64,000 nucleotides of DNA, taken from positions 434,001 through 498,000 of the forward strand of contig NZ_CP025117.1 of the NCBI RefSeq assembly GCF_002831645.1, in the 5' to 3' direction. The number at the start of each line of letters is the position of its first letter. The stretch's first letter is position 1. The notes beneath the pieces were generated by a model, which saw nothing but the letters and a program-made list of their open reading frames with translations, made no database searches and was not told the origin of the DNA. This DNA comes from Olleya sp. Bg11-27. Lineage in GTDB: Bacteria > Bacteroidota > Bacteroidia > Flavobacteriales > Flavobacteriaceae. Below, in pieces: positions 21,226-39,270 of this stretch. A program made the translations under genes and the position numbers.

Positions 21226-21531
21226 ATGCCTGCAAACACAAAATACTTAAACACCTCTCCTTGGCAACAATTTGCTAAAATATCTGCTGGTATTTTGGGA
21301 GGCTATATAATCTCAGCAGTATTACATATGTGTTTATCGCTTTGGCTACCAAACCCAAAAGCGGTTTTAATTACATCCATAGTTACATTATTTATAGTTT
21401 GGTGTGCATTACTAATTATCCCTTTTTTATTTAAAAACGGATGGAAAGCTTGGTTACTTTATATCGTAATTATTACTCTGTTGTATAGCATCTATCTTAT
21501 AGGAAATCAAAACAATCCCTTTGTATCATGA
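21226..21531 (+). CDS. Small membrane protein, DUF3649-like (iron-uptake accessory)
   Basis: This 101-residue protein has three hydrophobic helices: KISAGILGGYIISAVLHMCL, an AVLITSIVTLFIVWCALLI hairpin helix, and AWLLYIVIITLLYSIYLI. The GGY in helix one and the tryptophan-containing second loop resemble DUF3649 proteins that accompany PiuB-type PepSY proteins. It overlaps the next start by 4 nt (ATGA at 21528-21531), so it is translationally coupled. Function is not established. Confidence 0.65.
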   Translation: MPANTKYLNTSPWQQFAKISAGILGGYIISAVLHMCLSLWLPNPKAVLITSIVTLFIVWCALLIIPFLFKNGWKAWLLYIVIITLLYSIYLIGNQNNPFVS

Positions 21532-23597
21532 GCAACAGAAACTACAATGTATTCTTTAATACCCATACAGTAAGCGGTATTGTAATAAGCGTTGCTTTAT
21601 ATATTATCTTTTTTGCTGGTGCATTTTCATTATTTAAAGAAGAAATAGGTCTTTGGCAAGAAGGAACAGCAGAAAGTCATACAGAAAGAAAAAATATTGA
21701 TTACGATAATATTTTTAAAATTTTAGAAAAAAACTATGCACTCACAGGACGGGATCTACAATTAAATCTCAATGAAAAAAGTGATAAAATACATATTTTA
21801 CTAAGCAAGAGTAAAGATGCTTTAGCGTCTGACAAAGTCAATAAAAAAGAGTATTTCTCCGTAGATATAAAATCTGCAGACACCAAAGGATATGTTGAAA
21901 GTTATAGCTTAGGTGAGTTTATATATCGCTTACATTTATTTGCCCAGTTTCCGTACATAGGCATATATCTTGCTGGTTTTGTATCACTATTTTTTTTGTT
22001 CGCCATAGCTACGGGAGTTATAGTACATTGGAAAAAAATAATAGCTAACTTCTACACATTTAATCCGAAGAATGCTTTAAAACGTGTCTGGACAGATGCA
22101 CACACAGCACTTGGTGTTATCGGTTTACCTTTTCAATTTATGTTTGCTGTAACAGGCGCATACTTTTGTTTAAGTATTTTGGTATTAGTGCCTGCAAATT
22201 TTTTGTATGGAGGAGACCAAGGTCAATTAATGGCAGATCTAAGACCAGAACGTAAAACTTATGAATGGGTTGCCAAGTCTGAAAAAGAAATGCCCAGTTT
22301 TAATGCTTTTGCTCAAACAACAGCCAATAGATGGGAGGATTTTCATTTAACCACAGGTTTTGTTAGAAATTATGGTGGTACAAATATGAAATACGTTATC
22401 ACTGGCCAACTAACAGATAATAAAAGTTTTACAGGTACTGGTCGCATTGTATATAACGCCTACTCTGGTGACATTGAAGAAGAAAGAGATCCTCATAATT
22501 TAGTCTATTCAGAAGATATACAGCGCGTCATTAGTAGATTACATTTTGGTGATTTTGGAGGACTTCCAATGAAGTTTATCTACTTCATTTTATCACTAAT
22601 TACTTGTTTTGTTATCGTTACAGGTGTCTTAATTTATGTGGAAGCACGTAACAAAAAAAGCAATACTTTAAAGCAAAGGCGGTATACAACTAAAGTTGGA
22701 CATATTTATATGGCAATATGCCTGTCTATGTTCCCCGTAACTGCACTAGCTTTTTTATTCGTAAAAATCACTAACACCTATTTTGTAAATAAACAAACCG
22801 CCATCTATAGTTTTTTCTTTGTGCTTTGGCTCCTTGCTATTCTATATTTTAGGTTTAAAAGAGATAATTACTACACCAACAAAGTAACCTTATTATCAGG
22901 TGCAATTCTTGGACTATTAATTCCAATTACTAGTGGTATTGTTTCCAATAATTGGATTTGGACGACTTATAAAAATAATCAATTCGAAATCCTTTCAGTA
23001 GATATACTTTGGATCCTATTATCCATAACAGCCTTTCTAGTTTACTTAAAAATCAAACCGTCTATTAAAGACAAAAGTGCTTCTAGTAAAAACCCTATTG
23101 ATTACAAAAACATTAAAGCTCTAAAAGCCGAAGACGACAAGAAATTACAACCCACACAAGATCAAATAAAAACACTATCACCAAAACAAAAAGACGAAAA
23201 TCACATAGAAATGAGAACAAAAATTATTATTCTTTGGCTATTTTTAGGATTAGGATGGATCGTACATCATATATATGGCCTTTTCAATATCTATTACAAC
23301 GAAACCTTAATTATCGAAAACGCAACAGGTGCTGTACCTGTGGCCCATCATATTTACAGAATCCTATTTGAAGGCTTATGTTTACTTTTTGCACTACTTA
23401 CAATTGAAATCTCCAAAAATTGGTTTAAGTGGACGGCTTTTGTATGGGCTATAATTGCAGGTTTATATAATGTCTATCATTTTGTAGAAGCCATACTTTT
23501 TGAACGTTCCAATATTTCAGAAATTTTCACACTATTACTAGTATCCGTAGCAAGTGTTTTCTTGGTAAAGAATTTATATTTATGGATAAAGGAATAA
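21528..23597 (+). CDS. PepSY-associated transmembrane protein (PiuB-like)
   Basis: This 689-residue inner-membrane protein has an N-terminal PepSY_TM unit (HTVSGIVISVALYIIFFAGAF), a periplasmic loop, then FLFAIATGVIVHWKKI with WTDAHTALGVIGLPFQFMFAVTGAYF, the family's second and third helices carrying conserved His residues. RLHFGDFGGLPMKFIYFILSL follows, and the C-terminal part adds about six further helices. Such proteins are thought to reduce ferric-siderophores or heme at the inner membrane. The C-terminal extension is longer than the usual ~450-residue PepSY_TM protein. It is the last of three coupled genes and is followed by a terminator. Confidence 0.85.
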   Translation: MSNRNYNVFFNTHTVSGIVISVALYIIFFAGAFSLFKEEIGLWQEGTAESHTERKNIDYDNIFKILEKNYALTGRDLQLNLNEKSDKIHILLSKSKDALASDKVNKKEYFSVDIKSADTKGYVESYSLGEFIYRLHLFAQFPYIGIYLAGFVSLFFLFAIATGVIVHWKKIIANFYTFNPKNALKRVWTDAHTALGVIGLPFQFMFAVTGAYFCLSILVLVPANFLYGGDQGQLMADLRPERKTYEWVAKSEKEMPSFNAFAQTTANRWEDFHLTTGFVRNYGGTNMKYVITGQLTDNKSFTGTGRIVYNAYSGDIEEERDPHNLVYSEDIQRVISRLHFGDFGGLPMKFIYFILSLITCFVIVTGVLIYVEARNKKSNTLKQRRYTTKVGHIYMAICLSMFPVTALAFLFVKITNTYFVNKQTAIYSFFFVLWLLAILYFRFKRDNYYTNKVTLLSGAILGLLIPITSGIVSNNWIWTTYKNNQFEILSVDILWILLSITAFLVYLKIKPSIKDKSASSKNPIDYKNIKALKAEDDKKLQPTQDQIKTLSPKQKDENHIEMRTKIIILWLFLGLGWIVHHIYGLFNIYYNETLIIENATGAVPVAHHIYRILFEGLCLLFALLTIEISKNWFKWTAFVWAIIAGLYNVYHFVEAILFERSNISEIFTLLLVSVASVFLVKNLYLWIKE

Positions 23598-23649
23598 CTT
23601 TTCACACTAAACTACCGTGATACATACTATTAAACTAACACTAACTCCC

Positions 23650-23680
23650 AAAAACGCCAACCTCACAGTTGGCCTTTTTC
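23650..23680. terminator. Intrinsic terminator after the PepSY gene
   Basis: GCCAACctcacaGTTGGC with flanking A and T tracts. The stem-loop is nearly identical to the terminator at 36206-36238. Confidence 0.85.
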
Positions 23681-23722
23681 ATTTATAAACAGCCACTCTA
23701 GTCTAAAGCAGTAACACGTACC
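23650..23722 (-). pseudogene. Relic of the 3' end of a BON-LysM gene plus its terminator
   Basis: About 70 bp match 36206-36280, the terminator and last codons of the intact LysM protein at 36255. Read on the minus strand, 23698-23722 encodes VRVTALD then TAG, against VLRIPALD then TAG in the intact gene. Nothing upstream of these codons resembles LysM: the similarity fades before 23730 and the next gene ends at 23767. This looks like the tail of an ancient paralogue, or a copied terminator segment. Confidence 0.65.
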
Positions 23723-23766
23723 CACGTCTTTTTTATCTAAATCTGATGGCATTTACTTAAAAACAT

Positions 23767-25977
23767 TTATTTCAAGGTGCCACTTTTAATTTTTTGAAGC
23801 GTTTCCGTGTATCCTTTTAATGCTTCATCGTCTTTGTTGTCCGTAGCCAATGTAATCGCTTCGGATTCCATTTGAATTGCTTTTTCTAAACTACCCGTAA
23901 AATACAATAAGTGTGCATAAGTATCCATGTAATAATGATTTTCAGGCTCTATTTCCAAACTCAACTTAGACCAATCTAAAGCCCTTTTTAATAATTGTTT
24001 ATCCGTATTTTGCTTGGTCACAACCTGCCAAGCCACGGTATTAGAAGCTTCCGACAATTGATCACTCAGTCTATTTATCTCATTATGAGGATACATTTCG
24101 TCTGGACTTAATAAATAACTATTATAATATTGCTCGATTTGATTTTTATAATTACCCTGCTTACTTATTATGGATTTGTAAAACGAATCAAAAGCATCAT
24201 AAGGACTGGTATTATTCAAAATTAAATAATTAAGATAGTTACCTATAAATTGCGAATTGAACCCTTTAAGCAACATTATATTTTCATAAGTTGGAATCAC
24301 TAATTCTGGATACTGTAAAGCACCCTTTTTATTTAATCCAAATCCAATAGCATAAATATTATTGTCATAATTAGAATATCTGACTTTTATTTGAGCAATC
24401 TGTGTTGCAAACCTGGACAAATAAAGACTAAACTCAAAATAAATCTTAGATTTACTAAATGACTCATAACCGATAAAATCATTAAAATTATAATCGTAAG
24501 ACACATAATTAATTGCAAGATTAGCATAAACACTATCTAAAACTTTATCTGTTTTATGTTTAATTGTCAGCCTTGTTAATTCGTCTTTTAATTGGACCGC
24601 CGCAATACTTTTCCAATAAAATTGCGCAGTGGTTTTTCTATTTCTTTCCTTGTTGCTCGAATACCTCTCACTAACTTCTGTGACTTCCGTAACACTCTCA
24701 TGCTCTCCTGTTAGATTTTTAAATAAGAAATCTTTATCCTCTATTTGATTTAAATTTAAAAAGTCCTTAGCCGAAGTTATTTTAGCCTTGATTTTTTTAT
24801 CTATGACATGAACGGCATTTAAATTTATTAATTTTTTATCCAGCTCTAACGTACTTAAACTAAGGCCATACTTATTTCTAAATCTATTACTCCAAATCTG
24901 TTCTGTATAAAGCGTTTCTAAATGTGAATTAATAGCAATAACTTCATTTGCATTCTCAGAGTTAAATTTAACTAAAGCCTTTCTATCTTCAGGCTTAGAT
25001 AAGTATACTATGATATTTTTTAAATGGGCATCGTAATCACCCCTTGAATAATTATTTAATCCCCTTGCAAATTCTTCAAAATAGGCTTGAGCATTATTAT
25101 CTAATAATTGATTAAAGATTAATAAGATTTTAGAATCATCTGCTTGTACCAACTCTAAAGCCGCATCCAAACTTTCTATCTTTGGAAAATGATCGTCATA
25201 AGTTGTTGGACTAATATTTAAGACAGGTTGATAACTTAATTTAGGATTGTCAAATTTTTTATAAGCCTCCTGCTCCACTTTTAAAGGCACCGTCCAATTT
25301 TTAATAGAATCTGTTGCTGTTTTTTTAACATAATCACCTTTAGGGTTATCCGTAGAAAACAGTCTTTTATTCACCTTTAGCTTACCTGCACCATCGATTT
25401 CTGCAAACAAATTTAAGTTTGATTTTTTATTGTAATTATATTTAAAATCAAAGAAAAGATTAGAGGTGTTTTTAGGAAGTTTAAAACTTTCTAAATAACT
25501 TAAATTAATATATTCCTCTTCATATACTAATTGTAAATAATTAGACTTTGGTATTTTTAATTGGTAGGTTTTACTATTTGACGTTGTATTAAATAAGCGT
25601 GATTCAATGATAAGATTAACGTATGTGTAGTCATCATTAGCATTTTGCTTATAGCCAATATATGTATTATCTGCTGATGAAATAATATCATATACCGACA
25701 CACTAATTGTAATACTATCCGTTTTTTGTTCAGAATTACTAATCACTGTAAAGCGACTTTGATCTATCTCAGGAGTTTTAAATACTATATATTTATTTTC
25801 TAAGGTTGAAAAAGACGTTTCGTTTTTAATGATCTTATACGTGTTGTCTTCAAATACACAAACGGCAGCCCCACCAGTACCAGGCACACCATAATAGATT
25901 GTTTTTTGTTGCGCTATACCTGATAAAACAGACATGTAAAATAAGAAAAATACTATTTGTTTTTTGTTCAAAGTCAT
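23767..25977 (-). CDS. Large secreted protein of unknown function with C-terminal TPR-like helices
   Basis: This 736-residue protein has a signal peptide (FFLFYMSVLSGIAQ) and no lipobox. Residues ~20-230 are beta-rich; ~265-370 contain an alpha/beta segment (DSKILLIFNQLLDNNAQAYF), possibly thioredoxin-like; the last ~70 residues look like a tetratricopeptide pair (PENHYYMDTYAHLLYFTGSL, KAIQMESEAITL). No catalytic motif was recognised and there is no T9SS sorting domain. It stands alone, convergent with the PepSY locus. It is probably a periplasmic or outer-membrane-associated protein; function unknown. Confidence 0.7.
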   Translation of the reverse strand: MTLNKKQIVFFLFYMSVLSGIAQQKTIYYGVPGTGGAAVCVFEDNTYKIIKNETSFSTLENKYIVFKTPEIDQSRFTVISNSEQKTDSITISVSVYDIISSADNTYIGYKQNANDDYTYVNLIIESRLFNTTSNSKTYQLKIPKSNYLQLVYEEEYINLSYLESFKLPKNTSNLFFDFKYNYNKKSNLNLFAEIDGAGKLKVNKRLFSTDNPKGDYVKKTATDSIKNWTVPLKVEQEAYKKFDNPKLSYQPVLNISPTTYDDHFPKIESLDAALELVQADDSKILLIFNQLLDNNAQAYFEEFARGLNNYSRGDYDAHLKNIIVYLSKPEDRKALVKFNSENANEVIAINSHLETLYTEQIWSNRFRNKYGLSLSTLELDKKLINLNAVHVIDKKIKAKITSAKDFLNLNQIEDKDFLFKNLTGEHESVTEVTEVSERYSSNKERNRKTTAQFYWKSIAAVQLKDELTRLTIKHKTDKVLDSVYANLAINYVSYDYNFNDFIGYESFSKSKIYFEFSLYLSRFATQIAQIKVRYSNYDNNIYAIGFGLNKKGALQYPELVIPTYENIMLLKGFNSQFIGNYLNYLILNNTSPYDAFDSFYKSIISKQGNYKNQIEQYYNSYLLSPDEMYPHNEINRLSDQLSEASNTVAWQVVTKQNTDKQLLKRALDWSKLSLEIEPENHYYMDTYAHLLYFTGSLEKAIQMESEAITLATDNKDDEALKGYTETLQKIKSGTLK

Positions 25978-26392: not shown

Positions 26393-26757
26393 AATAAAAG
26401 CAAATATTTATAAATAAACGTTCTTGCAACAACATATAACTTGTAGTAACAGTCATTAAACCACCTAACCAAGTGGTTTTTTTATACTTTTTTTACCGTT
26501 TTACGGAAACCCGTAAAAATTAATCATTACATCGTTGTAACTTAGGCGTAACAAATAAAATCACGTAGTTATACCTGTTTTAAACACGTCATAATAATTG
26601 TAAGTTTGTGGACGAGCACTTAAGTAAATCAAGAATAAAAATGCCACATATTCCGCAATTCTTATGGGATATGTGCTACTTTAGTTCTTGTATAAGTAGT
26701 TTTAGGTAATTAGTAGCAAGAACTTATGAAATAAATACTAGAGCCTTTTTATATAAA
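26393..26757. other. Gene-free leader region with hairpins; possible left edge of the cassette array
   Basis: Contains the terminator at 26458, a hairpin TTTTACGG/CCGTAAAA (26499-26518), a possible cassette junction CG/TTGTAA at 26533-26540, and two further inverted repeats in the leader of the next gene: CACATATTCC/GGGATATGTG (26644-26675) and AGTTCTTG/CAAGAACT (26683-26724). A -7-like TAAGTTTG lies at 26601-26608. No coding frame was seen. Confidence 0.45.
26458..26483 (+). terminator. Intrinsic terminator after the small gene
   Basis: AAACCAC (26458-26464) and GTGGTTT (26473-26479) form a stem followed by a T run. Confidence 0.8.
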
Positions 26758-27741
26758 ATGGAAAAAAAAATCATTGTAGTCCCAAGTCATCTCATATTTG
26801 ACCAAACACTAAATTTCATAAATACTTTCAAGAATTTAAGAGAAGAAAGAGAATACGTCTTTGATTTTAAAAACCTAAATAGAATTGACCCTTTTTCTCT
26901 TCTTTGCCTAAGTAGTGAGATGGCAATTTTTAAAAAGAATAATACTAATTCTAAGTTTTCTGCAAAAAATTTTGAACATAGAACTTACGAAGCTCATATG
27001 GGCTTTTTTAAATCTTTTGGTTTAAATTTTGGAAAAACACCTGGTGAAGCGAATAACAATGATAATTACATACCAATAACGCTATATTCAGTACAAGAAA
27101 TTCTAGAAGAATCTCGAGAATTAATGATTCCACCTGGTGAATTTTTAACTAATAAAGCAGAAGAAATAAGTAAAGTACTAACAAGAAACTCTAATAATGA
27201 ACTAAAGGAAGTATTGACCTATTCAATACGTGAAATTTTCAGAAATATTGTTGAGCATAGCCATACAGATACATTTGGATTTTGCGCACAATATTTACCA
27301 AGTAAAAACAAAGTTGTTTTTGCTGTATTAGATCGTGGAATTGGAATAAAAAAATCTTTAACTGATAATCCAAAACTAAATCTAAACTCTGACAAGGAAG
27401 CAATTTCAAAAAGCTTGGAACCAGGGGTTTCTGGTAAAATTTATGCAGGTCAAAAACGCAAACCAAAAGGTGAATGGGCTAATTCAGGTTATGGATTATA
27501 TATGACCAGCAACATATGTAAGAAAGGAGGATTATTCTTTATAGCAAGTAATACAAGCGGACTTCTTTTAGGAAAGGATAGTTCAAAGGAATTTGAATTT
27601 AATCTAACAGGAACTGGACTCTCATTAACTATTAACACAAATTCAATTGACAAATTAAATGATATGCTAAAAGAATTAAGAGATATAGTACCTAGAAAAG
27701 TTAAAATTAAAGCGTCTAAATCAAGTATGAATAAAAGTTAA
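26758..27741 (+). CDS. STAS-like plus GHKL-type ATPase protein (cassette A)
   Basis: In this 327-residue protein, residues 1-95 look like a STAS fold (YVFDFKNLNRIDPFSLLCLSSE). A HATPase_c domain occupies about 140-290, with N-box EIFRNIVEHSHTD, G1 box VLDRGIGIK and G2-like WANSGYGLYMTSNICKKGG. No histidine-kinase dimerisation helix is present, so it is closer to anti-sigma/SpoIIAB-like ATPases than to sensor kinases. Its usual partners (for example a separate STAS-like small protein) are absent. It is the first gene of the cassette-like region; its 3' end carries CTACAAC (27747-27753), which may pair with a start-side GTTGTAA at 26534-26540. Role unknown; regulatory or defence-linked signalling is plausible. 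Confidence 0.75.
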   Translation: MEKKIIVVPSHLIFDQTLNFINTFKNLREEREYVFDFKNLNRIDPFSLLCLSSEMAIFKKNNTNSKFSAKNFEHRTYEAHMGFFKSFGLNFGKTPGEANNNDNYIPITLYSVQEILEESRELMIPPGEFLTNKAEEISKVLTRNSNNELKEVLTYSIREIFRNIVEHSHTDTFGFCAQYLPSKNKVVFAVLDRGIGIKKSLTDNPKLNLNSDKEAISKSLEPGVSGKIYAGQKRKPKGEWANSGYGLYMTSNICKKGGLFFIASNTSGLLLGKDSSKEFEFNLTGTGLSLTINTNSIDKLNDMLKELRDIVPRKVKIKASKSSMNKS

Positions 27742-27746
27742 ACCAC

Positions 27747-27935
27747 CTACAACAACGTTTATAACTAATGGCTATTACAGGCTTTTTGAGCGGTTTTTGC
27801 TTATTTACAAAGTAGTCATTTTTTTATTTGATTATATTTATAAACGAAAATAAAACATGAAAACGAAAAATTCGGCTCGTGCTAAATCCGAAAAGTTAGT
27901 GTCTTTTTACACGCTACGTTTCATACACAAGATCG
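27747..27935 (+). repeat. attC-like recombination site after cassette A
   Basis: The left side CTACAACAACGTTTATAACT continues to AATGGC. The right arm GCTACGTTTCATACACAAGATCG ends in the CG/TT junction at 27934-27937. The reverse complement of the left arm aligns with the right arm with mismatches, the weakest pairing of the array. The right half shares TTCGGCTCGTGCTAAA and CTACGTTTCATACAC with the sites after cassettes B, C and D. Confidence 0.6.
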
Positions 27936-27955
27936 TTAGCTGTTATTAAAAAAAT

Positions 27956-28639
27956 ATGAACTTATTAAAAATCTCAATCATTTTACTGTTATTTATAAGT
28001 TGTTCTTCTAAGAAAAAAGAAAATGAAGCACAATCTGAAAAATTGAAAAATGAACAATTATCTATTAAGAATACGACCATTACTAAAAAAGATAGTATTG
28101 TCATACAGAACCTTATAAGAAAAGTTTATAAATGGAATAAAAGTAATAATCGTAATTATTTTAACATTGGAATTGAAGACAATGATTATTCAGTTGTTAG
28201 CTGGAGCCCTGAAGGAGAAAAAGCAATTAAGTATATAGGAATTGACTGGAATGAATTTGATTCTATTAAAAATGATTTAGAGAAAACCGATTACTTCTCA
28301 AAGGGCTTCATTGATAATTACAGAGAAATTTTAAAGAACATAGATAATAAGGTTAAGAATGGAAAGTATGAATGGTACAAAGGTTATCTTCCTCCATTTG
28401 GAACGGGGGCTAATGAATGGTGTCATTGCCAAGACTATCCTGATGAATATTGGAATACTATGATAATTAACACTATTGAATTAAAAAATGATTCTGTTAA
28501 TTTAACTTGGGATTTTGGGAAAGACATTAAATGGAATTGGATAAATGATTATAAAACAGGTTATCCTTTAACTGTGATTAAGGAATCTGAAAATTGGAAA
28601 ATATCATATATGGATGGATTTGACAAAAAACATTATTAA
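27956..28639 (+). CDS. Putative lipoprotein (cassette B)
   Basis: This 227-residue protein has a lipoprotein leader, LLLFISCSS, placing a lipidated Cys at about residue 17, followed by a charged linker (KKKENEAQSEKLKNEQ). The mature part is aromatic- and Asn-rich (GYLPPFGTGANEWCHCQDYP, LTWDFGKDIKWNWINDY) with no known family. The gene is enclosed by the complementary cassette ends TTAGCTGTT (27936-27944) and AACAGCTAA (28650-28658). There is only ~12 nt between the cassette start and the ATG, so expression probably depends on an upstream promoter or one within the preceding site. Confidence 0.7.
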   Translation: MNLLKISIILLLFISCSSKKKENEAQSEKLKNEQLSIKNTTITKKDSIVIQNLIRKVYKWNKSNNRNYFNIGIEDNDYSVVSWSPEGEKAIKYIGIDWNEFDSIKNDLEKTDYFSKGFIDNYREILKNIDNKVKNGKYEWYKGYLPPFGTGANEWCHCQDYPDEYWNTMIINTIELKNDSVNLTWDFGKDIKWNWINDYKTGYPLTVIKESENWKISYMDGFDKKHY

Positions 28640-28649
28640 AATCAAAAAC

Positions 28650-28843
28650 AACAGCTAATAAGGTATAAAAAACATAGGGCGTTTGTGCTAAACCGAAAGT
28701 TCTGTATTTATTTACAAAGTCCGCTAAATATAAAAATTGGCATTTATAGTAGAAAAAGATAAAAGCAAAATATTTATATTTAGCTAAGTAATAAACCAAA
28801 ACGAAAGTGCTTATCAACTGCCCTACGTTTCTTATACTTAACG
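28650..28843 (+). repeat. attC-like recombination site after cassette B
   Basis: Left arm GGTATAAAAAACATAGGGC (28662-28680); right arm GCCCTACGTTTCTTATACTT (28820-28839), then AACG/TTGTGC. The reverse complement of the left arm matches the right arm at 16 of 19 positions. The outer AACAGCTAA pairs with the cassette's own start TTAGCTGTT once circularised. This is the R''-L''...L'-R' layout of integron attC sites, ~194 nt long. Confidence 0.8.
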
Positions 28844-28874
28844 TTGTGCCTTATTTGAGAAAAATCCAGAATAA

Positions 28875-31118
28875 ATGATAAAAAGAGTTAATAAAATTGA
28901 AAAATTTGGTGTTTTTAAAGACTACAAAAGAACTGGAAACATAGAAGACTTTAAGAAGTTAAATATCATATATGGATGGAATTATTCAGGAAAAACTACC
29001 TTATCAAGAATAATTGGTTGTTTTAATGAAAACCAAATCTCTACGGATTATAATCAAGCAAATTTTGAGATTTTAGATAACAACTCTAAATCATTTAATA
29101 AAGACAATTTAGCTGATTATACAAACCCAGTAAGAGTTTTCAATTCTGATTTTCTTAAAAATAATCTAAAATGGGATGGAGAAACCTTTAACCCTGTTTT
29201 ACTTCTTGGAGAAGAATCAATTGAAAAAGAAAAGGAAATTGAAGAACTATCAAAAAAAGTTGACCGTTTAATAAGTATAAATGGAAAACTTAAAAACATT
29301 TCAAGTTCTTTAAAAAGCAGTATTGAAAATGGTTTAACTACAAAAGCTTCGTTTATAACAGCAAAATTAGGTATTGTTGAGTCTTTTACAAAAGTACAAT
29401 TAAGACCTATTTTTAATCAAATTAAAGATAGTTACGCTACCTACAAATTAAGTTCTAGTCAAATAGCTGAGTACATAATTAGTGCTAAAATGTCTGAAAG
29501 TGATAAGAAAAATGATATACAACTAGTAAACGTTAACTTAAATTTTTCAGATATATATAGTAAAACTACTAAATTACTTTCTGAGACACCAGCCTTTTCT
29601 AAAACTATTGATTTTTTATTAGAGAATCCAAATATTTCAGAATGGGTAGAAAAAGGAGTTGATTTACATAGCGAAAAACAAAATTGCTTATACTGTCATA
29701 ATGAAATTTCAGAGACAAGAAAAAATGACCTTTTAGCACATTTTTCAGAAGACTTAAAGAAACACAAAGGTGATTTAAATAAATTACTTGAGATATTGGA
29801 AGAATCTAAAATTAGTATTAAAAAACTTGACTCAAGGGATTTTTATTCTTCATTAAATATAGAACCTAAATCTATAAATTTACAGATTACGGAGAAAGTA
29901 AATAATTATAATAACCAAATTGAGTTGTTAAAAGATAAAGTCAATTCAAAACTGACTAACACTTTTACACCCATAATTGATTTTTCAGAAATTACAAATT
30001 TGTCTGATTCAATCTCTACACTTGTAATCGAAATCAATGAAAAATATAATTTAAACAACCAATACACATTAGAGTTTAATAAAAAGAAGTCTGATGCATT
30101 AAAAAAACTAAAACAACATTATGCATCAGAATTAATTAAAAGTTTAAACCTTAAATATAAAGAGTCTAAAATCACAACTTATAACAATAGGTTTTCATCT
30201 TTTGAATTAAAAATAAATGAATTCAATACTAATATTAAACTAATAGAAGCCGAAATAAGTAATGCTCAAAAAGGTCGAGAAAAAATAAATGAATTCATTC
30301 ATTCCTTTTTAGGTCGTGAAGAAATAAATATCGAAGTTATTAATGAAAATGGCAATGAATTTTTTACACTAAAACGTAATGATGACATTGCTAAAAACTT
30401 AAGTGAAGGAGAGAAAACTGCAATCGCTTTTTCTTTTTTTTTAACTAAATTATTAGAAGTTCCTAATTTTGAAACTTCTATTATTTATATAGATGACCCC
30501 ATTTCAAGCTTAGATAGCAACCATATTTTTCAGGTAAATGCTTTAATTAAAGACTTTTTCTTTAAGGATGAGGAAAATGGACCAAATAGTTTAAAATGTT
30601 TACAGTTATTCCTCTCAACTCATAATTTTGAATTTTTTAATCTACTAAGAGAACTACCATTAGGTAAAAGAGATACTGAATATTATTTTATAAGAAGGAT
30701 TGCAGAAAGTGAATCAGGTCTTTACAGGTTACCAAAAGCAATAAGAGATTATAAGTCCGAATATCATTATTTATTTAACGAATTATACAAGTTTCATAAT
30801 TCTGCTAATAAAGAAGATTATGAGGCTTTAATGAATATACCAAACTCTATGAGACGTTTTGTAGAATTATATTCATATTCTAAGATTCCAGGAAATTATA
30901 ACTCTAAAGTTGATGAAAGAACAGACAAAATATTTGGAATCGAAAAATCAAAAAGGATAATGAAAGTTTTACATTATTTCAGTCATTCAAACAGTATAAA
31001 TAGAATGATGGTAAATAGTGATTTATTATGTGACATTGAGTTTGCTGTTTCTGATTTAATTACAGAACTTGAAAAGGATACTTTGCATTACGAAGAACTA
31101 TGTAAGTCTATAGAATAA
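28875..31118 (+). CDS. RloC/PrrC-like AAA ATPase, probable anticodon nuclease (cassette C)
   Basis: This 747-residue protein has Walker A GWNYSGKT (34-41), long coiled coils interrupted by a zinc-hook CLYC (271-274), ABC signature LSEGEKTA (about 509-516), Walker B IIYIDDPISSLDS (about 535-547) and H-loop LFLSTHNF. The C-terminal ~110 residues hold R660-x3-E664 and H700/H704, spaced like the Arg-Glu-His nuclease triad of PrrC (R320, E324, H356). The RloC group combines a Rad50-like hook with an anticodon nuclease that cuts host tRNA during phage infection or DNA damage. PrrC's restriction partner genes are absent, as expected for RloC. It is bounded by cassette ends TTGTGCCTT (28844) and AAGGCACAA (31123). 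Nuclease activity is inferred. Confidence 0.82.
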   Translation: MIKRVNKIEKFGVFKDYKRTGNIEDFKKLNIIYGWNYSGKTTLSRIIGCFNENQISTDYNQANFEILDNNSKSFNKDNLADYTNPVRVFNSDFLKNNLKWDGETFNPVLLLGEESIEKEKEIEELSKKVDRLISINGKLKNISSSLKSSIENGLTTKASFITAKLGIVESFTKVQLRPIFNQIKDSYATYKLSSSQIAEYIISAKMSESDKKNDIQLVNVNLNFSDIYSKTTKLLSETPAFSKTIDFLLENPNISEWVEKGVDLHSEKQNCLYCHNEISETRKNDLLAHFSEDLKKHKGDLNKLLEILEESKISIKKLDSRDFYSSLNIEPKSINLQITEKVNNYNNQIELLKDKVNSKLTNTFTPIIDFSEITNLSDSISTLVIEINEKYNLNNQYTLEFNKKKSDALKKLKQHYASELIKSLNLKYKESKITTYNNRFSSFELKINEFNTNIKLIEAEISNAQKGREKINEFIHSFLGREEINIEVINENGNEFFTLKRNDDIAKNLSEGEKTAIAFSFFLTKLLEVPNFETSIIYIDDPISSLDSNHIFQVNALIKDFFFKDEENGPNSLKCLQLFLSTHNFEFFNLLRELPLGKRDTEYYFIRRIAESESGLYRLPKAIRDYKSEYHYLFNELYKFHNSANKEDYEALMNIPNSMRRFVELYSYSKIPGNYNSKVDERTDKIFGIEKSKRIMKVLHYFSHSNSINRMMVNSDLLCDIEFAVSDLITELEKDTLHYEELCKSIE

Positions 31119-31122
31119 AAAC

Positions 31123-32030
31123 AAGGCACAATCGAGTAGACGGCTCCGACTAAAATAGCCGGAGTGCGCCTCTCACACCACCGTACATACGCAACTACGT
31201 TAGTCCTTTCGCCTCTATTGCTACCCGCAACAGCACTCAGGAACGTATACGGCGGTTCGTAAATCATCACGCCAAAGGGCTTTTCACCCTTGACACTATC
31301 TTCTAATTTAGGCATAGGCTACCACTAGTGCTCCTATGCGAATTTTGAAGAGAATTACGCTCCCTCCTTCCTTACTTGTGAGACCTTCTGAGGTATTGCC
31401 TCAACTCGTGTCCTGTAAGTACTATGACCTCTGCTGACTTCTCCAAATAGTCAACTCGTAACTTTGGACACCTCCCCAGGTAATGGCATCTGCTTTCACT
31501 CAATCACTGCCGTATCTACATAATTACCCTTTTGGTAATCGTTGGGCGTTACAATGCTATGCTTGCTTACCCGAATAACTATGCCTCTGTATACGATTTC
31601 TGTTTAGTTTATGCTGAGCGCAGCCGAAGTATCAGTACCGAGTTTTGTAGTGGTATTTGCTCATTAATCAATCACAAATAGCCTTCAGATGTAACCTCGC
31701 GATTACCAACCTTGCGACTTACTAATGCTTCAATAAGCCTGTCCTGAGCGTAGCCGAAGGGTTACTCCTGCGCATAAGGGACTTGCACCCTCTAGATTAA
31801 TTATTTACCTTTAGGTAAATTAAAAGAGGCCCATGCTGGGCACACACAATGTGTATAATTAATGCGGGTTTTATTTTTAATCCAAAGTTTTGTGTGTTTT
31901 TACCAAGTACGTCAAATCATTTTGATTTGACTTTAGACAAAAACAAGATAAAGCCAAACAAAATGCTTTGCCTCGTGCTAAACTGAAAGTCTTCTGACTT
32001 TCAATTCCCGCACTAACCATACACGCAACG
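31123..32030 (+). repeat. attC-like site after cassette C, split by a group II intron
   Basis: With the intron (31131-31845) removed, GGCACA joins ACAATGTGTATAATTAATG. The reverse complement of GTGTATAATTAATGCGGG (31851-31868) matches the right arm CCCGCACTAACCATACAC (32007-32024) at 15 of 18 positions, followed by GCAACG/TTGTGC. The inner part contains hairpins GTCAAATCA/TGATTTGAC and GAAAGTC/GACTTTC. Confidence 0.8.
31131..31845 (-). mobile_element. Group II intron, ORF-less, 715 nt, copy 1
   Basis: Minus strand, 5' end GTGTGCCCAGCATGGGC (the GUGYG start and Domain I opening). GAGGGTGCAAGTCCC and GGTAATCGCGAGGTTACATC follow. A Domain V-like hairpin has lower helix ACCGCCGTA/TACGGTGGT, a TG bulge and upper TACG/CGTA helix, then a Domain VI-like stem CTCCGGCTA/TAGTCGGAG and 3' end CTACTCGAT. 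No reverse transcriptase frame is present, so mobility would need help in trans. The exact 3' boundary may shift by one base. It is inserted antisense to the cassette genes in the R'' side of an attC-like site. Confidence 0.85.
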
Positions 32031-32055
32031 TTGTGCAACATATGACAAGAAACTT

Positions 32056-32541
32056 ATGAAAGAATGGTTTAAATATGAATTTGGATATGTAAATATAGAT
32101 TCTGAATATCTTTATTTAACAAATACTGGGAATTGGAGTGAAATTTCAAGTTTGAATGAAAAAGCAAAAAGAATCGCAAATAAAAATGACAATAAAAGTT
32201 CTCGAATTCTCTTCTTTTTAATTGTTATAGCTTGCTTTTTTGGATTTTTACTTTATAAAAATATTTTGAGTGGAAAAGTTAGCTTGACTTTGATTTTCTT
32301 GACTGTTTTTGGGGGTTACAAATTATATGAATATATGAAAACCGAAATTGGTTGGAAATTTAAAATTCCGATAAAAAAAATAACAGAAATAAAAACTAAT
32401 GATAGAAATATAGAACTCGTTTTTTTGAATGGTGAAAACATATCTGATTTTCATAAATTAAATCGAATAGATGAAAAAGGAATAGATATTATTAATAAAC
32501 TAAAAAATACGTTGCACAATCGAGTAGACGGCTCCGACTAA
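32056..32541 (+). CDS. Small membrane protein with intron-altered C terminus (cassette D)
   Basis: This 161-residue protein has a soluble N-terminal part, two adjacent hydrophobic helices (ILFFLIVIACFFGFLLY and VSLTLIFLTVFGGYKLY) and a C-terminal beta-rich half. The two helices followed by a PH-like C-terminal domain recall small bacterial YcxB-like proteins, only tentatively. The frame runs through the cassette end GTTGCACA into the antisense intron, which supplies the last residues (NRVDGSD) and stop. Removing the intron gives NNVYKK and a TAG at 33249, the likely ancestral end. It is bounded by cassette ends TTGTGCAAC (32031-32039) and GTTGCACAA (32511-32519). Confidence 0.7.
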   Translation: MKEWFKYEFGYVNIDSEYLYLTNTGNWSEISSLNEKAKRIANKNDNKSSRILFFLIVIACFFGFLLYKNILSGKVSLTLIFLTVFGGYKLYEYMKTEIGWKFKIPIKKITEIKTNDRNIELVFLNGENISDFHKLNRIDEKGIDIINKLKNTLHNRVDGSD

Positions 32542-33421
32542 AATAGTCGGAGTGCGCCTCTCACATCACCGTACATATGCAACTACGTTGATCCTTTCGT
32601 CTCTATTGCTACCAGCAATAGCACTCAGGAACGTATACGGCGGTTCGTAAATCATCAAGCCAAAGGGCTTTTCACCCTTGACACTATCTTCTAATTTAGG
32701 CATAGGCTACCACTAGTGCTCATATGCGAATTTTGAAGAGAATTACGTTCAGTACTTCCTTACTTGTGAGACCTTCTGAGGTATTGCCTCAACTCGCGTC
32801 CTGTAAGTACTATGACCTCTGCTGACTTCTCCATATAGCTAACTCGTAACTTTGGAGACCTCCCCAGGTAATGACATCTTCTTTCTCTCAATCACTGCCG
32901 TATCTACATAATTACCCTTTTGGTAATCGTTGGGCGTTACAATGCTATGCTTGCTTACCCGAATAACTATGCCTCTGTATACGATTTCTGCTTGGCCTGT
33001 CCTGAGCGTAGACGAAGGGTCAGTACCGAGTTTTGTAGTGGTATTTGCTCATTAATCAATCACAAATAGCCTTCAGATGTAACCTTGCGATTACCACCCT
33101 TGCGACTTACTAATGCTTCAATAAGCCTGTCCTGAGCGTAGCCGAAGGGTTACTCCTGCGCATAAGGGACTTGCACCCTCTAGATTAATTATTTACCTTT
33201 AGGTAAATTAAAAGAGGCCCATGCTGGGCACACACAATGTATATAAAAAATAGCGCAAGTCTCTACTAACACTAAGGTTTGGGCATTTTTGGAAAGTCGC
33301 CAAATTTTCAAATTTGACAAATTCCCAAAAATAAAATAATTAATAAAATTTAAAAATTCGGCTTGTGTATTATTCGAAATTTATCGCTTATTTTCAGCGC
33401 TACATTTCATATACGAGACGT
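32511..33421 (+). repeat. attC-like site after cassette D, split by a group II intron
   Basis: With the intron removed the left arm is GTTGCACA joined to ACAATGTATATAAAAAATAG and CGC. Its reverse complement aligns with the right arm GCGCTACATTTCATATAC (33398-33415), followed by GAGACG/TTAGTG. A CAAATTT/AAATTTG hairpin and a TTCGGCTTGTG segment lie inside. Confidence 0.8.
32519..33233 (-). mobile_element. Group II intron, ORF-less, 715 nt, copy 2
   Basis: It has the same length, ends and domains as copy 1, with scattered substitutions and no length change, inserted at the same position of its attC-like site and in the same antisense orientation. The 5' exon reads ACATTGT and the 3' exon TGTGCA. 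It carries two copies of a 24-bp CCTGTCCTGAGCGTAGCCGA-type repeat (32996-33019 and 33126-33149). Confidence 0.85.
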
Positions 33422-33445
33422 TAGTGGCAATTAAAAAAAAGACCT

Positions 33446-33910
33446 GTGAGATATACTTCGATTTACATACTTATTTTGACTATTATGTTTGTTTCATGTG
33501 GACGAACTGATAACAAAAAAATAGATAGTGAAAAGCAAGAGGTTTCCCCTTCATCAGACAGTTTATCGGTTGAACTCAGTTCAGAACATCAAAATATCCT
33601 AGGCATTTGGACCAACTGCGCAACAAATCATAATGGAGTTATAATGACAGCAAACGTTTGTAAAACAATAGAATTTAAAACTGACAATTCAGGTAGTGTA
33701 ATGTATCCTTCGCAAGAAATACGAACATTTAGTTGGGCTTTCACAGACGATATACTTACTGTGAATTTAACAGATGACAAAATGGAAAGTTACAGAACTC
33801 TTTCAGAGAGCCCATTTCAAATCCAATTAACAGAAGACAGTTTGGGTTTCGATTTAGAATTAAAATCTAAGAATGAAAATAAGATCTATTATCTAGGACG
33901 ACAGAAATAG
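33446..33910 (+). CDS. Putative lipocalin-like lipoprotein (cassette E)
   Basis: This 154-residue protein uses a GTG start, with no ATG in frame before the leader. The leader ILILTIMFVSCGR is a lipobox with Cys at about residue 18. A Ser-rich linker precedes a compact beta domain (ILGIWTNCATNHNGV, KTIEFKTDNSGSV, FSWAFTDDILTVN) resembling lipocalin-like proteins of Bacteroidota. Ligand and role are unknown. The gene is bounded by cassette ends TTAGTGGCA (33422-33430) and TGCCACTAA (33930-33938); the latter touches the truncated third intron. Confidence 0.7.
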   Translation: MRYTSIYILILTIMFVSCGRTDNKKIDSEKQEVSPSSDSLSVELSSEHQNILGIWTNCATNHNGVIMTANVCKTIEFKTDNSGSVMYPSQEIRTFSWAFTDDILTVNLTDDKMESYRTLSESPFQIQLTEDSLGFDLELKSKNENKIYYLGRQK

Positions 33911-33937
33911 ATATGATGAAAGAAAAAACTGCCACTA

Positions 33938-34059
33938 ATCGAGTAGACGGCTCCGACTAATATAGCCGGAGTGCGCCTCTCACACCACCGCACGTACGCA
34001 ACTACGTTAGTCCTTTCGTCTCCATTGCTACTAGCAATAGCACTCAGGAACTCATACGG
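33938..34059 (-). mobile_element. Group II intron, truncated copy 3 (3' end only)
   Basis: About 120 nt match the 3' end of copies 1 and 2 (Domain VI, Domain V 3' strand and its apical insert), again directly after a cassette end. Similarity stops at CATACGGT (34052-34059), where a REP-like repeat begins. The 5' ~590 nt are missing. Confidence 0.8.
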
Positions 34060-34121
34060 TATTAAGAATTGATACTATTGCTTCTTATGATAAACATGTA
34101 CGACACTCGTTACAAACGAGC
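34057..34121. repeat. REP-like repeat, copy 1
   Basis: GTATTAAGAATTGATACTAT and following bases recur at 34938-35003. The right part holds an imperfect inverted repeat CGCTCGTT/AACGAG-type (ACACTCGTT, ACAAACGAGC). No transposase is nearby. Confidence 0.65.
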
Positions 34122-34170
34122 GCTAACGGAGGCAAACAACATTCACAGGTAATTGTAATGACTAATAATT

Positions 34171-34650
34171 ATGTATAAAAAAACAATAACTATAATAATA
34201 TTAATATTTTTAATTGAATCTTGTAAGACAAAAGATATTGTTTTTACAGACAACCATCAGGCAATTTTTGTTTTAGCAAACAAGAATAATGGTAATTATT
34301 TTTCGAAAAATAAATTTGAAAGTCATAAAACTCAAAAAAAACAAAGTTACTTATATACTTATTATTTTTCTGATAATTCTAATAAGATACAGTTAGTATA
34401 CAAAGAATATGAAAGCTTTGATGATTTTGAAATGAACAACTCAACTCCATATTTTAATGTTAACATAAGGTTTTTAAAAAACAATAAAACGAACATTTAC
34501 AACATAAAAAAATTACGAGCAATTGGTTATAAAGAATCACATAAAATATTTAAAAATGCAAAACATATTTTTTTAATAGAAAAAGATTTAAAAAACAGTG
34601 AAAATTTAATAATTAAAAAAGTAAGAACGTTTGAAATTGGTGAGATTTAA
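34171..34650 (+). CDS. Putative lipoprotein, unknown function (possible cassette F)
   Basis: This 159-residue, lysine- and asparagine-rich protein has leader TIIILIFLIESCKT giving a lipidated Cys. No domain is recognised. Composition is AT-richer than neighbouring core genes and similar to genes of the cassette array. No matching complementary cassette ends were found, perhaps because the preceding attC-like site was destroyed when the third intron was truncated. Confidence 0.6.
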   Translation: MYKKTITIIILIFLIESCKTKDIVFTDNHQAIFVLANKNNGNYFSKNKFESHKTQKKQSYLYTYYFSDNSNKIQLVYKEYESFDDFEMNNSTPYFNVNIRFLKNNKTNIYNIKKLRAIGYKESHKIFKNAKHIFLIEKDLKNSENLIIKKVRTFEIGEI

Positions 34651-35058
34651 AAAACTATAAAACATAAATTTCATAATCCAACAACAGCACATTTTGTTTC
34701 GTTTTCTAAAGTATATTGTATAGATGCCTTTACAAGGTAAGACTATTTTAATATTCTAATAGAAAGTATAGACTATTGAAAAAAAAGAAAAAGGCATAGA
34801 ATTATATTGAGTTATGGAGTACTACAGTTATAAAACAAAAAATAGAGTACATCCATAACGCCCCTATTTTTTCTGGTTTTGTTAGTCCCCAATAGATTCG
34901 AAATATAGTAGCGCTAAGCATTTTGCAGACGATCATACAGTATTAAGAATTGATACTATTGCTTCTTATGATAACATGACGACACTCGTTACAAACGAGT
35001 GATAGCTGGGATTGCAGAATACCAAACAGACTTCCTTCCAGTGTTTGAGTCTAATTAA
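34651..35058. other. Gene-free region with a REP-like repeat
   Basis: No credible coding frame is seen across 408 bp. It contains AT-rich sequence and, at 34938-35003, the second copy of the REP-like repeat. It marks the right edge of the accessory region before the azoreductase gene. Confidence 0.5.
34938..35003. repeat. REP-like repeat, copy 2
   Basis: Matches 34057-34121 over about 65 nt with a few changes. It contains the palindrome CACTCGTT-ACA-AACGAGTG (34983-35001). Confidence 0.7.
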
Positions 35059-38026: not shown

Positions 38027-39028
38027 ATGAGTCAACAATTAAAATACGCTGTTTTTGGATCCGGAAGTTGGGCCACTGCAATTGTAAAAATGCTTTGCGA
38101 AAACTTAGACGAAGTCGGATGGTACATGCGTAGCGTTTACACCAAAGAGCATTTATTAAAAGAGCAACATAATCCTAGTTATTTAAGTTCTGTCGAGTTT
38201 CATTTAGAGCAATTAAAACTAAGTAACGATATTAACGAAATGGCAGAATATGCCGATGTGCTAATTTTTGTAGTCCCATCCGCATTTATACATTCTGAAT
38301 TACAAAAACTAACCGTAGATATTACTAATAAAACAGTGGTCTCTGCAGTAAAAGGTATTCTTCCAGAAACAGGAATGCTTTTAGGAGAATATTTTCACGA
38401 CAGCTATAAAATACCTTTCGAGAACATTGCGGTTATCGCAGGACCATGTCACGCAGAAGAGGTAGCGTTAGAGCGTTTATCGTACTTAACCATATCTTGT
38501 GCCGATCAGAAAAAAGCACAAGCTATTGCAGATGTATTGTCAAGCGATTATATAAAAACTAAAACTAGCGATGATGTTATTGGTACAGAATATGCCGTAA
38601 TGCTTAAAAACATTTATGCTATTGCTGCCGGAATCGCACACGGTTTGGGCTACGGAGATAACTTCCAAAGTGTATTAATGAGTAACGCGATCCGAGAAAT
38701 GAAGCGTTTTATTAAAAAAATGCACAAAATGAAACGTAACATAAATAACTCCGCTTACTTAGGCGATTTATTAGTTACCGGATACTCTACCTTTTCTAGA
38801 AACCGTTTATTTGGAAACATGATTGGTAAAGGGTACACTGTAAAATCTGCACAAATGGAAATGAGTATGGTAGCAGAAGGCTATTACGCCACTAAAAGTG
38901 CTCATTTATTAAACGAGAAAAACAAAAAGAAAACACGTTTACCAATAGTCGATGCTGTTTATGCTGTACTATACGAAGGTAAAGACGCCAAAAAGGTGTT
39001 TCAGAAATTAACAGATAAATTAGATTAA
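38027..39028 (+). CDS. gpsA: NAD(P)H-dependent glycerol-3-phosphate dehydrogenase
   Basis: This 333-residue protein has the Rossmann motif AVFGSGSWATAIVKML, the VVSAVKGILPETG and IAGPCHAEEVA stretches, the catalytic-lysine region GTEYAVMLKNIYAIAAGIAHGLGYGDN, and DLLVTGYSTFSRNRLFG. It reduces dihydroxyacetone phosphate to sn-glycerol 3-phosphate for phospholipid synthesis. It is monocistronic with its own promoter and terminator, divergent from the lipoprotein gene. Confidence 0.95.
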   Translation: MSQQLKYAVFGSGSWATAIVKMLCENLDEVGWYMRSVYTKEHLLKEQHNPSYLSSVEFHLEQLKLSNDINEMAEYADVLIFVVPSAFIHSELQKLTVDITNKTVVSAVKGILPETGMLLGEYFHDSYKIPFENIAVIAGPCHAEEVALERLSYLTISCADQKKAQAIADVLSSDYIKTKTSDDVIGTEYAVMLKNIYAIAAGIAHGLGYGDNFQSVLMSNAIREMKRFIKKMHKMKRNINNSAYLGDLLVTGYSTFSRNRLFGNMIGKGYTVKSAQMEMSMVAEGYYATKSAHLLNEKNKKKTRLPIVDAVYAVLYEGKDAKKVFQKLTDKLD

Positions 39029-39084: not shown

Positions 39085-39168
39085 GGGCGTTACCTAAAGG
39101 TCGCGCTTTACGTTGCAATCTTTTTAATCGTGCCTCATAAAAAGGATTTACACTACAATCGCTAACGC
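39085..39168 (+). repeat. Dispersed MITE/REP-like repeat, copy 1
   Basis: Begins GGGCGTTACC, continues AAGGTCGCGCTTTACGTTGC and ends AATCGCTAACGC; the GCGTTA/TAACGC ends are inverted. A related element in opposite orientation lies at 60340-60433. No coding capacity. Confidence 0.65.
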
Positions 39169-39270
39169 AACTACCAGCCAAAGGTTTTTAACACAATAGT
39201 GTAACAAACCTACTATTAAGTTATCCTTATTAAAAGCCATAATTTAACTTTTATTATAACCGTAAATAGT

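What the first reader, a model, noticed from the sequence alone, without database searches (positions are those of the whole stretch)
27747..33938. Integron-like gene-cassette array with attC-type sites and no integrase in the window
Seen directly: four consecutive genes are enclosed by cassette-specific 9-nt ends that are exact reverse complements: TTAGCTGTT/AACAGCTAA (27936, 28650), TTGTGCCTT/AAGGCACAA (28844, 31123), TTGTGCAAC/GTTGCACAA (32031, 32511), TTAGTGGCA/TGCCACTAA (33422, 33930). Every start follows CG (CG/TT). The spacers after cassettes B, C and D fold so that the left arm pairs with the right arm (GCCCTA..TTATAC, CCCGCA..ATACAC, GCGCTA..ATATAC) once introns are removed; the spacer after A pairs less well. 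This reproduces the R''-L''/L'-R' logic of integron attC sites, in which a circular cassette's ends pair and recombination occurs at G/TT. The outer 9-mers differ between cassettes but match within each, which chance repeats cannot explain. Sites are long (about 185-195 nt) and share TTCGGCTnGTG and CTACGTTTCATAC blocks. Integrons are poorly documented in Bacteroidota, so this may be an undescribed integron type or a CALIN.
Basis: partly seen in the sequence, partly recalled or inferred. Interest (0 to 1): 0.95.

Follow-up and report, generated by a model that had tools for sequence, protein, structure and literature searches.

The report
Integron-like cassette system of Flavobacteria
This stretch of a bacterial chromosome holds a row of gene cassettes with matching ends and hairpin-forming sites, the same kind of row that follows a distinct recombinase gene in many Flavobacteriaceae, so it likely belongs to an integron-like gene-swapping system that the papers searched here do not describe.

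Summary
All four 9-nt pairs are exact, and pairing continues past one A/C mismatch to 11 of 12 positions. The spacers are attC-like sites (cut inferred at G|TT); two are split by 715-nt group II introns at TTGT/T of the bottom strand, the IIC-attC target. The window also holds a fifth cassette and a decayed attI-like platform. Such sites occur in 260 of 299 genomes of the family. An attI-like junction follows a tyrosine recombinase gene in 41 of 43 named loci; strict cassette walking gave 78 steps from 21 of these 41, against 2 of 1720 control starts. The recombinase lacks the IntI insertion, scores below the IntI cut-off and has an extra N-terminal domain. Bottom strands fold better in 66 of 67 sites. 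Cassettes recur within and between species with similarity ending at G|TT, and eight same-genus genomes differ at this very locus. Against: no activity was tested; the own recombinase is frame-broken; two window sites are weak. Rated a new variant of the integron kind.

The parts
26458..26699 (+). decayed attI-like platform (ACGTAGTTATACC near 26563; GGGATATGTG; junction G|TT at 26699|26700)
   Evidence: aligns with 31 platform copies of the own genome and with orthologous platforms in G415 (76%) and G413 (84-85%); not found by the 27-nt attI model R2
26700..27935 (+). cassette 0: ORF 26758-27741 plus attC-like site; its start TTTTAGGTA matches its R'' (CCACCTACAAC, 27743-27753) only imperfectly
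   Evidence: no Pfam match; weak PADLOC DrmA match, 28.3 bits, E 5.5e-08
27744..27944 (-). attC-like site 0 (bottom strand modelled)
   Evidence: R1 36.9 bits; does not fold better on the bottom strand (-14.3 vs -15.3)
27936..28843 (+). cassette A: TTAGCTGTT ... AACAGCTAA, ORF 27956-28639 (no Pfam match)
28650..28852 (-). attC-like site A (185-nt class)
   Evidence: R1 17.5 bits, E 0.22; bottom -24.7 vs top -20.5
28844..32030 (+). cassette B: TTGTGCCTT ... AAGGCACAA, ORF 28875-31118 (AAA_13; PDC-S06 candidate defence protein)
31131..31845 (-). 715-nt group II intron in site B, bottom-strand junction TTGT/T; too short for an intron-encoded protein of usual size
   Evidence: Rfam RF02001 83.5 bits; boundaries by joining the flanks
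31837..32039 (-). attC-like site B (remainder, after the intron)
   Evidence: R1 32.1 bits; intronless fold bottom -37.7 vs top -32.3
32031..33420 (+). cassette C: TTGTGCAAC ... GTTGCACAA, ORF 32056-32541 (no Pfam match; its listed stop lies inside the intron)
32519..33233 (-). 715-nt group II intron in site C, bottom-strand junction TTGT/T
   Evidence: Rfam RF02001 77.2 bits
33225..33429 (-). attC-like site C (remainder, after the intron)
   Evidence: R1 37.4 bits; intronless fold bottom -23.4 vs top -20.5
33421..34059 (+). cassette D: TTAGTGGCA ... TGCCACTAA (33930-33938), ORF 33446-33910; its site is replaced by a 3' intron fragment 33938-34059

Best explanation
The window holds an array of integron-type gene cassettes (decayed attI-like platform, cassettes 0 and A to D, attC-like sites, two of them split by group II introns) that was likely assembled, and would be moved, by a Flavobacteriaceae tyrosine recombinase which lacks the IntI-specific insertion. 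Shown by sequence: each cassette starts G|TTNNNNNNN and ends in the reverse complement NNNNNNNAA(C); behind it lie L'' and L' arms, and then the next G|TT. Inferred: in the excised circle, or in the folded bottom strand, a cassette's own ends pair (R''/R') and the L arms form a continuous stem with G.T pairs; the recombinase cuts between G and TT, and the cassette is inserted at attI or at another attC. Shown: the intact recombinase genes end 24-48 nt before a conserved junction TATATTTG-like...CATATAACNMG|TT, and the cassettes follow on the same strand. Inferred: TATATTTG is a Bacteroidetes-type promoter -7 box (consensus TAnnTTTG recalled), which would make this an attI with a built-in cassette promoter. 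Shown in the own genome: one recombinase gene of this family (frame broken in this assembly) but 31 platform copies in the stretches fetched, 30 of them away from that gene. Inferred: the platforms are served in trans, and the window array is one such remote platform.
For: Exact ends and extension. Ends pair within a cassette (8.57 of 9, but selected for at least 8) and not with the neighbour (4.5 of 9; 0 of 64 exact, 1 of 64 at 8 or more). Strict cassette walking from the attI-like junction: 78 steps from 21 of 41 loci, and 19 of the 24 loci with more than 1.5 kb beyond it; control 2 of 1720 starts. attI-like motif in 41 of 43 recombinase loci against 5 of 359 upstream 1-kb pieces; a junction of this form at the expected place in the 20 further loci, 6 of which repeat genomes already counted (equal contig lengths). 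Site structure: 14 of 20 predicted pairs have compensatory double changes. Bottom strand more stable in 66 of 67 sites, L stem in 67 of 67, control 142 of 300. Site model R1: 86 matches in the own genome at E<=0.1, 260 of 299 family genomes at E<=1e-5. Of the 20 site-less genomes listed there (39 in all), 3 had a recombinase match, against 128 of 299 overall. Introns at TTGT/T of R'', the IIC-attC target (PMC7923331, passages). Mobility: four copies of one cassette, 96.6-99.8% alike, in one array; cross-species cassettes at 92.5% (1063 nt), 87.8% (532 nt) and 92.1% (660 nt); two of these sit directly behind attI in one species and elsewhere in the other. Same-locus comparison in eight congeners.
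Against: No recombination was measured. The own recombinase reads in two overlapping frames; the break lies at a run of A and could be a sequencing error. Site 0 does not show the bottom-strand preference and site A scores low with R1. The window attI is decayed and escapes the attI model. 5 of the 24 loci with more than 1.5 kb beyond the junction gave no strict step (L063, L069, L079, L080, L096). One of six intact homologues (P0080) passes the curated cut-off of the XerA-type model NF040815 (223.7 against 220), so a Xer-type role of the family is not excluded by sequence. Recombinase matches near 1e-10 may include other recombinases. Dispersed platforms are clear in the own genome; with model R2 only 5 of 9 genomes had two or more. 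Site-less genomes are often small or incomplete.
Confidence: 0.88

Rival explanations
1. Ordinary CALIN left by a classical IntI integron: the sites are plain attC sites moved by a canonical IntI that was lost or acts from elsewhere.
For: Same box logic and G|TT as attC; one attC of Polaribacter phage P12002L was recombined by IntI1 (PMC9892861, passages), and R1 finds 10 matches at E<=1 in that phage. Integrons are on record for Bacteroidota (PMC8618304, passage).
Against: No IntI above the curated cut-off in the own genome (IntI was not searched in other genomes). The arrays follow a different recombinase with its own conserved junction in 41 of 43 loci, in a family where sites are near universal.
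Confidence: 0.06
2. A REP/RAYT-like or IS200/IS605-like element: hairpins are moved by a Y1 HUH transposase and the genes between are passengers.
For: Hairpins with strand asymmetry are also hallmarks of HUH substrates (recalled).
Against: Cassette-specific ends that match within but not between cassettes are not expected of a fixed-end element; a tyrosine recombinase with a fixed junction precedes the arrays. HUH genes were not searched for.
Confidence: 0.02
3. Cassette-like blocks are shuffled by RecA-dependent homologous recombination between the repeated sites, with no site-specific enzyme at work today.
For: Sites are abundant repeats; the own recombinase copy is frame-broken, and stops occur inside several family members. 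In several rows the similarity ends before the attC, so bodies and sites can be mixed.
Against: For the full-length cases similarity ends at G|TT, not inside the 120-nt site; single cassettes sit directly behind attI, which shares little sequence with attC beyond G|TT.
Confidence: 0.04

Closest known systems
Integron (IntI, attI, attC cassettes)
   Same: tyrosine recombinase + attI-like site + cassettes with R''-L''-L'-R' sites, AAC/GTT boxes, G|TT point (inferred cut), better folding of the bottom strand, cassette exchange
   Different: recombinase lacks the IntI insertion and the IntI score, has an extra N-terminal domain, is transcribed towards the array; many remote platforms in one chromosome; long sites (118-124 and 182-195 nt in the 67 walked); an end sequence of 8-9 nt private to each cassette
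CALIN (cluster of attC sites lacking an integrase)
   Same: the window array has sites and no integrase
   Different: it has its own decayed attI-like platform, and the genome carries the associated recombinase about 0.65 Mb away
Reverse-oriented integrons of Spirochaetota
   Same: integrase orientation unlike the usual one (Spirochaetota IntIs 'generally in reverse orientation', PMC9668308, passage)
   Different: those are IntI; here the enzyme is not, by the curated model
attC sites in Polaribacter phage P12002L (PMC9892861)
   Same: R1 matches the phage at 10 places at E<=1, some only 61-71 nt long; one phage attC was active with IntI1
   Different: phage CALIN without integrase; the passages I saw do not link it to a flavobacterial integrase. 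I did not see the coordinates of its attC1/attC2
XerA / XerC / XerD chromosome resolvases
   Different: the own XerC-type gene is a separate gene beside hpf-, tRNA- and tuf-like genes (names from sequence and recall); Xer enzymes act on dif (recalled)

Membership tests
Integron | integrase of the IntI family with the IntI-specific insertion and curated score | tested here: not met
   TIGR02249 196-213 bits in six intact homologues, cut-off 265; IntI4 residues 184-246 against only residues 280-299 of P0005, about 43 residues fewer; own genome 0 over cut-off. [quoted passage not shown]
Integron | active-site residues of a tyrosine recombinase | tested here: met
   R231, H320, R323, H346 and Y355 of P0005 invariant in the 66 homologues aligned; the own copy is frame-broken
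Integron | attI beside the integrase gene | tested here: met
   conserved junction 24-48 nt behind the stop of intact genes; motif in 41 of 43 loci, control 5 of 359
Integron | attC sites: R''-L''-L'-R', AAC...GTT, folded bottom strand | tested here: met
   bottom strand better in 66 of 67; in the window 3 of 4; IntegronFinder's own model not run
Integron | cassettes gained, lost and reordered as units | tested here: met
Integron | integrase-catalysed recombination at G|TT | not testable with these tools
   no experiment; P12002L attC2 x attI1 by IntI1 is published for a related-looking phage site
Integron | cassette promoter (Pc) at attI | tested here: inconclusive
   TATATTTG-like box in A5; the promoter consensus is recalled, no expression data
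CALIN | two or more attC-like sites with no integrase nearby | tested here: met
   four sites; recombinase and IntI matches lie outside the window
Group IIC-attC introns | group II intron in the attC bottom strand at TTGT/T of R'' | tested here: met
   target from PMC7923331 (passages)
Group IIC-attC introns | class C ribozyme and intron-encoded protein lineage | not tested
   no intron-encoded protein seen in the 715 nt; only Rfam RF02001 matched
HARP domain (N-terminal domain of the recombinase) | sequence or fold match to HARP | tested here: inconclusive
   PF07443 E 0.042 in 1 of 11; no PDB sequence match to the N-terminal part at E<=10 beyond recombinases and a ribosomal protein; structure search dominated by residues 95-365

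The most novel reading that the evidence does not exclude
A separate kind of integron runs through Flavobacteriaceae: a XerA/IntI-like recombinase with an added N-terminal domain does, without the IntI insertion, what IntI needs it for (reading folded single-stranded attC). One such enzyme serves dozens of promoter-bearing attI platforms scattered over a chromosome in trans, making a distributed integron.
Probability: 0.6. Interest if true: 0.95.

Novelty: new variant of a known kind. Interest (0 to 1): 0.92.

Why it matters
Integrons are the best-known machines for swapping ready-made genes. Reviews list Bacteroidota among the phyla with integrons (PMC8618304 and PMC9668308, passages), but the IntegronFinder 2.0 survey reports only In0 elements earlier and then a complete integron in Salinibacter for Bacteroidetes proper (PMC9024848, passages). 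If the present reading is right, such surveys missed a system present in most genomes of a large bacterial family, plausibly because its integrase fails the IntI model. It makes one open question directly testable: can a tyrosine recombinase read folded attC without the IntI insertion, and does the N-terminal domain replace it? It also opens a large cassette reservoir, candidate phage defence included.

Tried and rejected
IntI in the own genome: only sub-threshold Xer-type matches; the 1734-kb hit is a XerC-type gene among housekeeping-looking genes. Single-sequence AlphaFold of P0005 was useless (pLDDT 34); the 66-sequence alignment gave 79.7. A HARP identity of the N-terminal domain, suggested by the recalled look of the sequence, could not be shown; no match to it was listed, which is no evidence against. 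A short attI model (R2) is too weak for decayed platforms. A reverse-complement 8-mer alone is not specific (control 251 of 860; that script also began one base early), so only the strict walk is used. In one search the attI start was misplaced in L058, L071, L095 and L096 (67 steps, 18 loci); one search repeats the walk from the junctions (78 steps, 21 loci). Fold and pairing statistics use the 67 sites. The first control contained runs of N; one search repeats it without. The upstream neighbour gene matched in only one other genome of 26, so gpsA-like 38027-39028 was used. The generic cassette finder also lists chance matches and opposite-strand mirror hits, so its total (67) is not used as a count of cassettes. 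Literature: ten searches in open-licence PMC papers only; no bioRxiv, most subscription journals missing. No paper listed there showed, by title or abstract, a flavobacterial integrase/attI system of this kind; the papers themselves were seen as passages only. That is not proof of absence.
Full report
What is in the window. The four pairs of 9-mers are exact. In all four cassettes the pairing runs on past one A/C mismatch at position 10 and then pairs again at 11 and 12. Of the 67 cassettes walked, 38 have nine pairs, and all 38 have the same A opposite C at position 10; the other 29 have their first mismatch at position 9. On the bottom strand an A/C mismatch is a T.G pair. The window also holds a fifth cassette in front (ORF 26758-27741 with site 27744-27944) and, before it, a decayed platform (26458-26699) that aligns with 31 others of the own genome.

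The sites. From the end of one cassette to the next G|TT the order is R'' (NNNNAAC), L'' (such as GTATAAAATTAATTGC), a variable part, L' (such as GCAACTAATCTTATAC), and G|TTNNNN. In the 67 sites the length is 118-124 nt in 61 and 182-195 nt in 6; the window's A-to-B site (185) belongs to the long class, and window sites share the TTCGGCT-GTG and CTACGTTTCATAC blocks seen in several long sites. Consensus folding of 41 of the 61 short sites (chosen by hand to thin near-identical ones) on the bottom strand gives 20 pairs, 14 of them with changes on both sides that keep the pair. With DNA parameters the bottom strand is the more stable one in 66 of 67 sites, and its L stem in 67 of 67; random 120-mers give 142 of 300. 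In the window three of four sites follow this and site 0 does not. The ends pair within a cassette and hardly between neighbours, as in a circular cassette. This comparison has a limit: cassettes were selected for at least 8 of 9.

Introns as an independent witness. Two group II introns, each 715 nt, sit on the minus strand between TTGT and T of the bottom-strand R''. PMC7923331 (passages) gives exactly this as the target of group IIC-attC introns.

Distribution. With the site model R1, 86 places match in the own genome at E<=0.1, 260 of 299 genomes of the family at E<=1e-5, and 39 of 118 genomes sampled over the phylum at E<=1e-6 (some single weak matches there may be other hairpins). The recombinase's N-terminal part matches 128 of the 299 at E<=1e-10; weak matches may be other enzymes, and diverged true ones may be missed, so far more genomes have sites than a detected enzyme. 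Of the 20 site-less genomes that one search lists (of 39), 3 (G062, G127, G161) had a recombinase match.

Many platforms, one enzyme. In the stretches of the own genome that I fetched, 31 attI-like platforms occur (one further motif match, L049 minus 13137, was dropped because it lacked the platform sequence), 30 of them away from the recombinase gene, which is the only one in those stretches by tblastn and the only match in the whole genome to its N-terminal part. Thirteen of the 31 start a cassette under the rule. Most carry a palindrome of the type TACGTAGTTNTACGTA upstream. With the short model R2, 5 of 9 complete genomes have two or more such junctions. Action in trans is inferred.

Mobility. 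Among 155 cassettes of 35 loci, 22 pair rows reach near full length (reciprocal rows counted). One array (L137) has four copies of a 557-560-nt cassette, 96.6-99.8% alike, with left flanks at 0.55-0.60 identity, in one pair 0.83, and right flanks at 0.51-0.55, against a background mean of 0.48. Between species, L137/L139 share a cassette at 92.5% over its full length of about 1.06 kb, and L140/L058 at 87.8% over 532 of 641 nt; in L139 and L058 it stands directly behind attI, in the partner elsewhere. Olleya sediminilitoris (L062) shares one with the own genome at 92.1% over 660 of 776 nt. At the window locus itself, flanks up to 20252 and from about 36.2 kb (36.9 kb in G414) are conserved in eight congeners. 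The window interval (15.9 kb) also holds two other genes (21528-25977). G415 and G413 have the orthologous platform with other first cassettes (TTGGCATTA, TTGTAAATA; window TTTTAGGTA) and three and seven R1 sites in the interval. Five have 0.14-1.9 kb there, and R1 finds nothing in those five loci at E<=0.1; G171 has 3.3 kb and one site. The first cassette of G413 ends in its own reverse complement; for that of G415 I found no such end.

Relation to print. IntegronFinder 2.0 (passages) reports, for Bacteroidetes, only In0 earlier and then a complete integron in Salinibacter; the eleven attC models of PMC8352920 contain no Bacteroidota (passages). PMC9892861 (passages) found attC sites in Polaribacter phage P12002L; the bottom strand of its attC2 was recombined with attI1 by IntI1, attC1 was not. 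R1 matches this phage at 10 places at E<=1, so flavobacterial-type sites can perhaps be read by a classical integrase; I did not see which coordinates were tested.

Verdict. It works like an integron in the features that sequence can show, but its enzyme fails the defining IntI test, so I do not file it as a member of the IntI integrons: a new variant of the kind. Cargo here includes a candidate defence protein (cassette B, PDC-S06) and proteins without Pfam match.

Noticed in passing
window 34052-34125 and 34933-35004: Two direct repeats (98% and 92%) about 880 nt apart flank ORF 34171-34650; the truncated intron behind cassette D ends where the first repeat begins, which suggests a mobile element or deletion there.
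   Followed up: partly
window 39095-39176 (-): Flavo-1 RNA (RF01705, 54 bits) behind the gpsA-like gene.
   Followed up: no
L052 5798-7357 and 3534-4526; L047, L048: A DDE transposase element (IS1182-like by recall) and an IS110-family element (Pfam) sit inside attC-like sites of the own genome; the first seems to duplicate five bases.
   Followed up: partly
platforms in L046-L049, L177-L195; window near 26563: A conserved palindrome TACGTAGTTNTACGTA upstream of most attI-like junctions, possibly an operator.
   Followed up: no
L196 (Polaribacter phage P12002L): Ten R1 matches at E<=1, several beside DNA methyltransferase genes, some only 61-71 nt long.
   Followed up: partly
loci: Many draft contigs end within 2 kb behind the recombinase gene, as expected if repeated sites break assemblies.
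   Followed up: no
Several genomes carry the recombinase gene with stops inside, so decay of the enzyme beside arrays may be common.
   Followed up: no
Related recombinases (31-39% identity, 90% or more covered) lie on plasmids of Chryseobacterium, Persicobacter, Rufibacter and Pontibacter; mobile versions may exist.
   Followed up: no
L049 125, 2855, 5064: Three attI-led cassette starts in a row, each with its own platform copy.
   Followed up: partly
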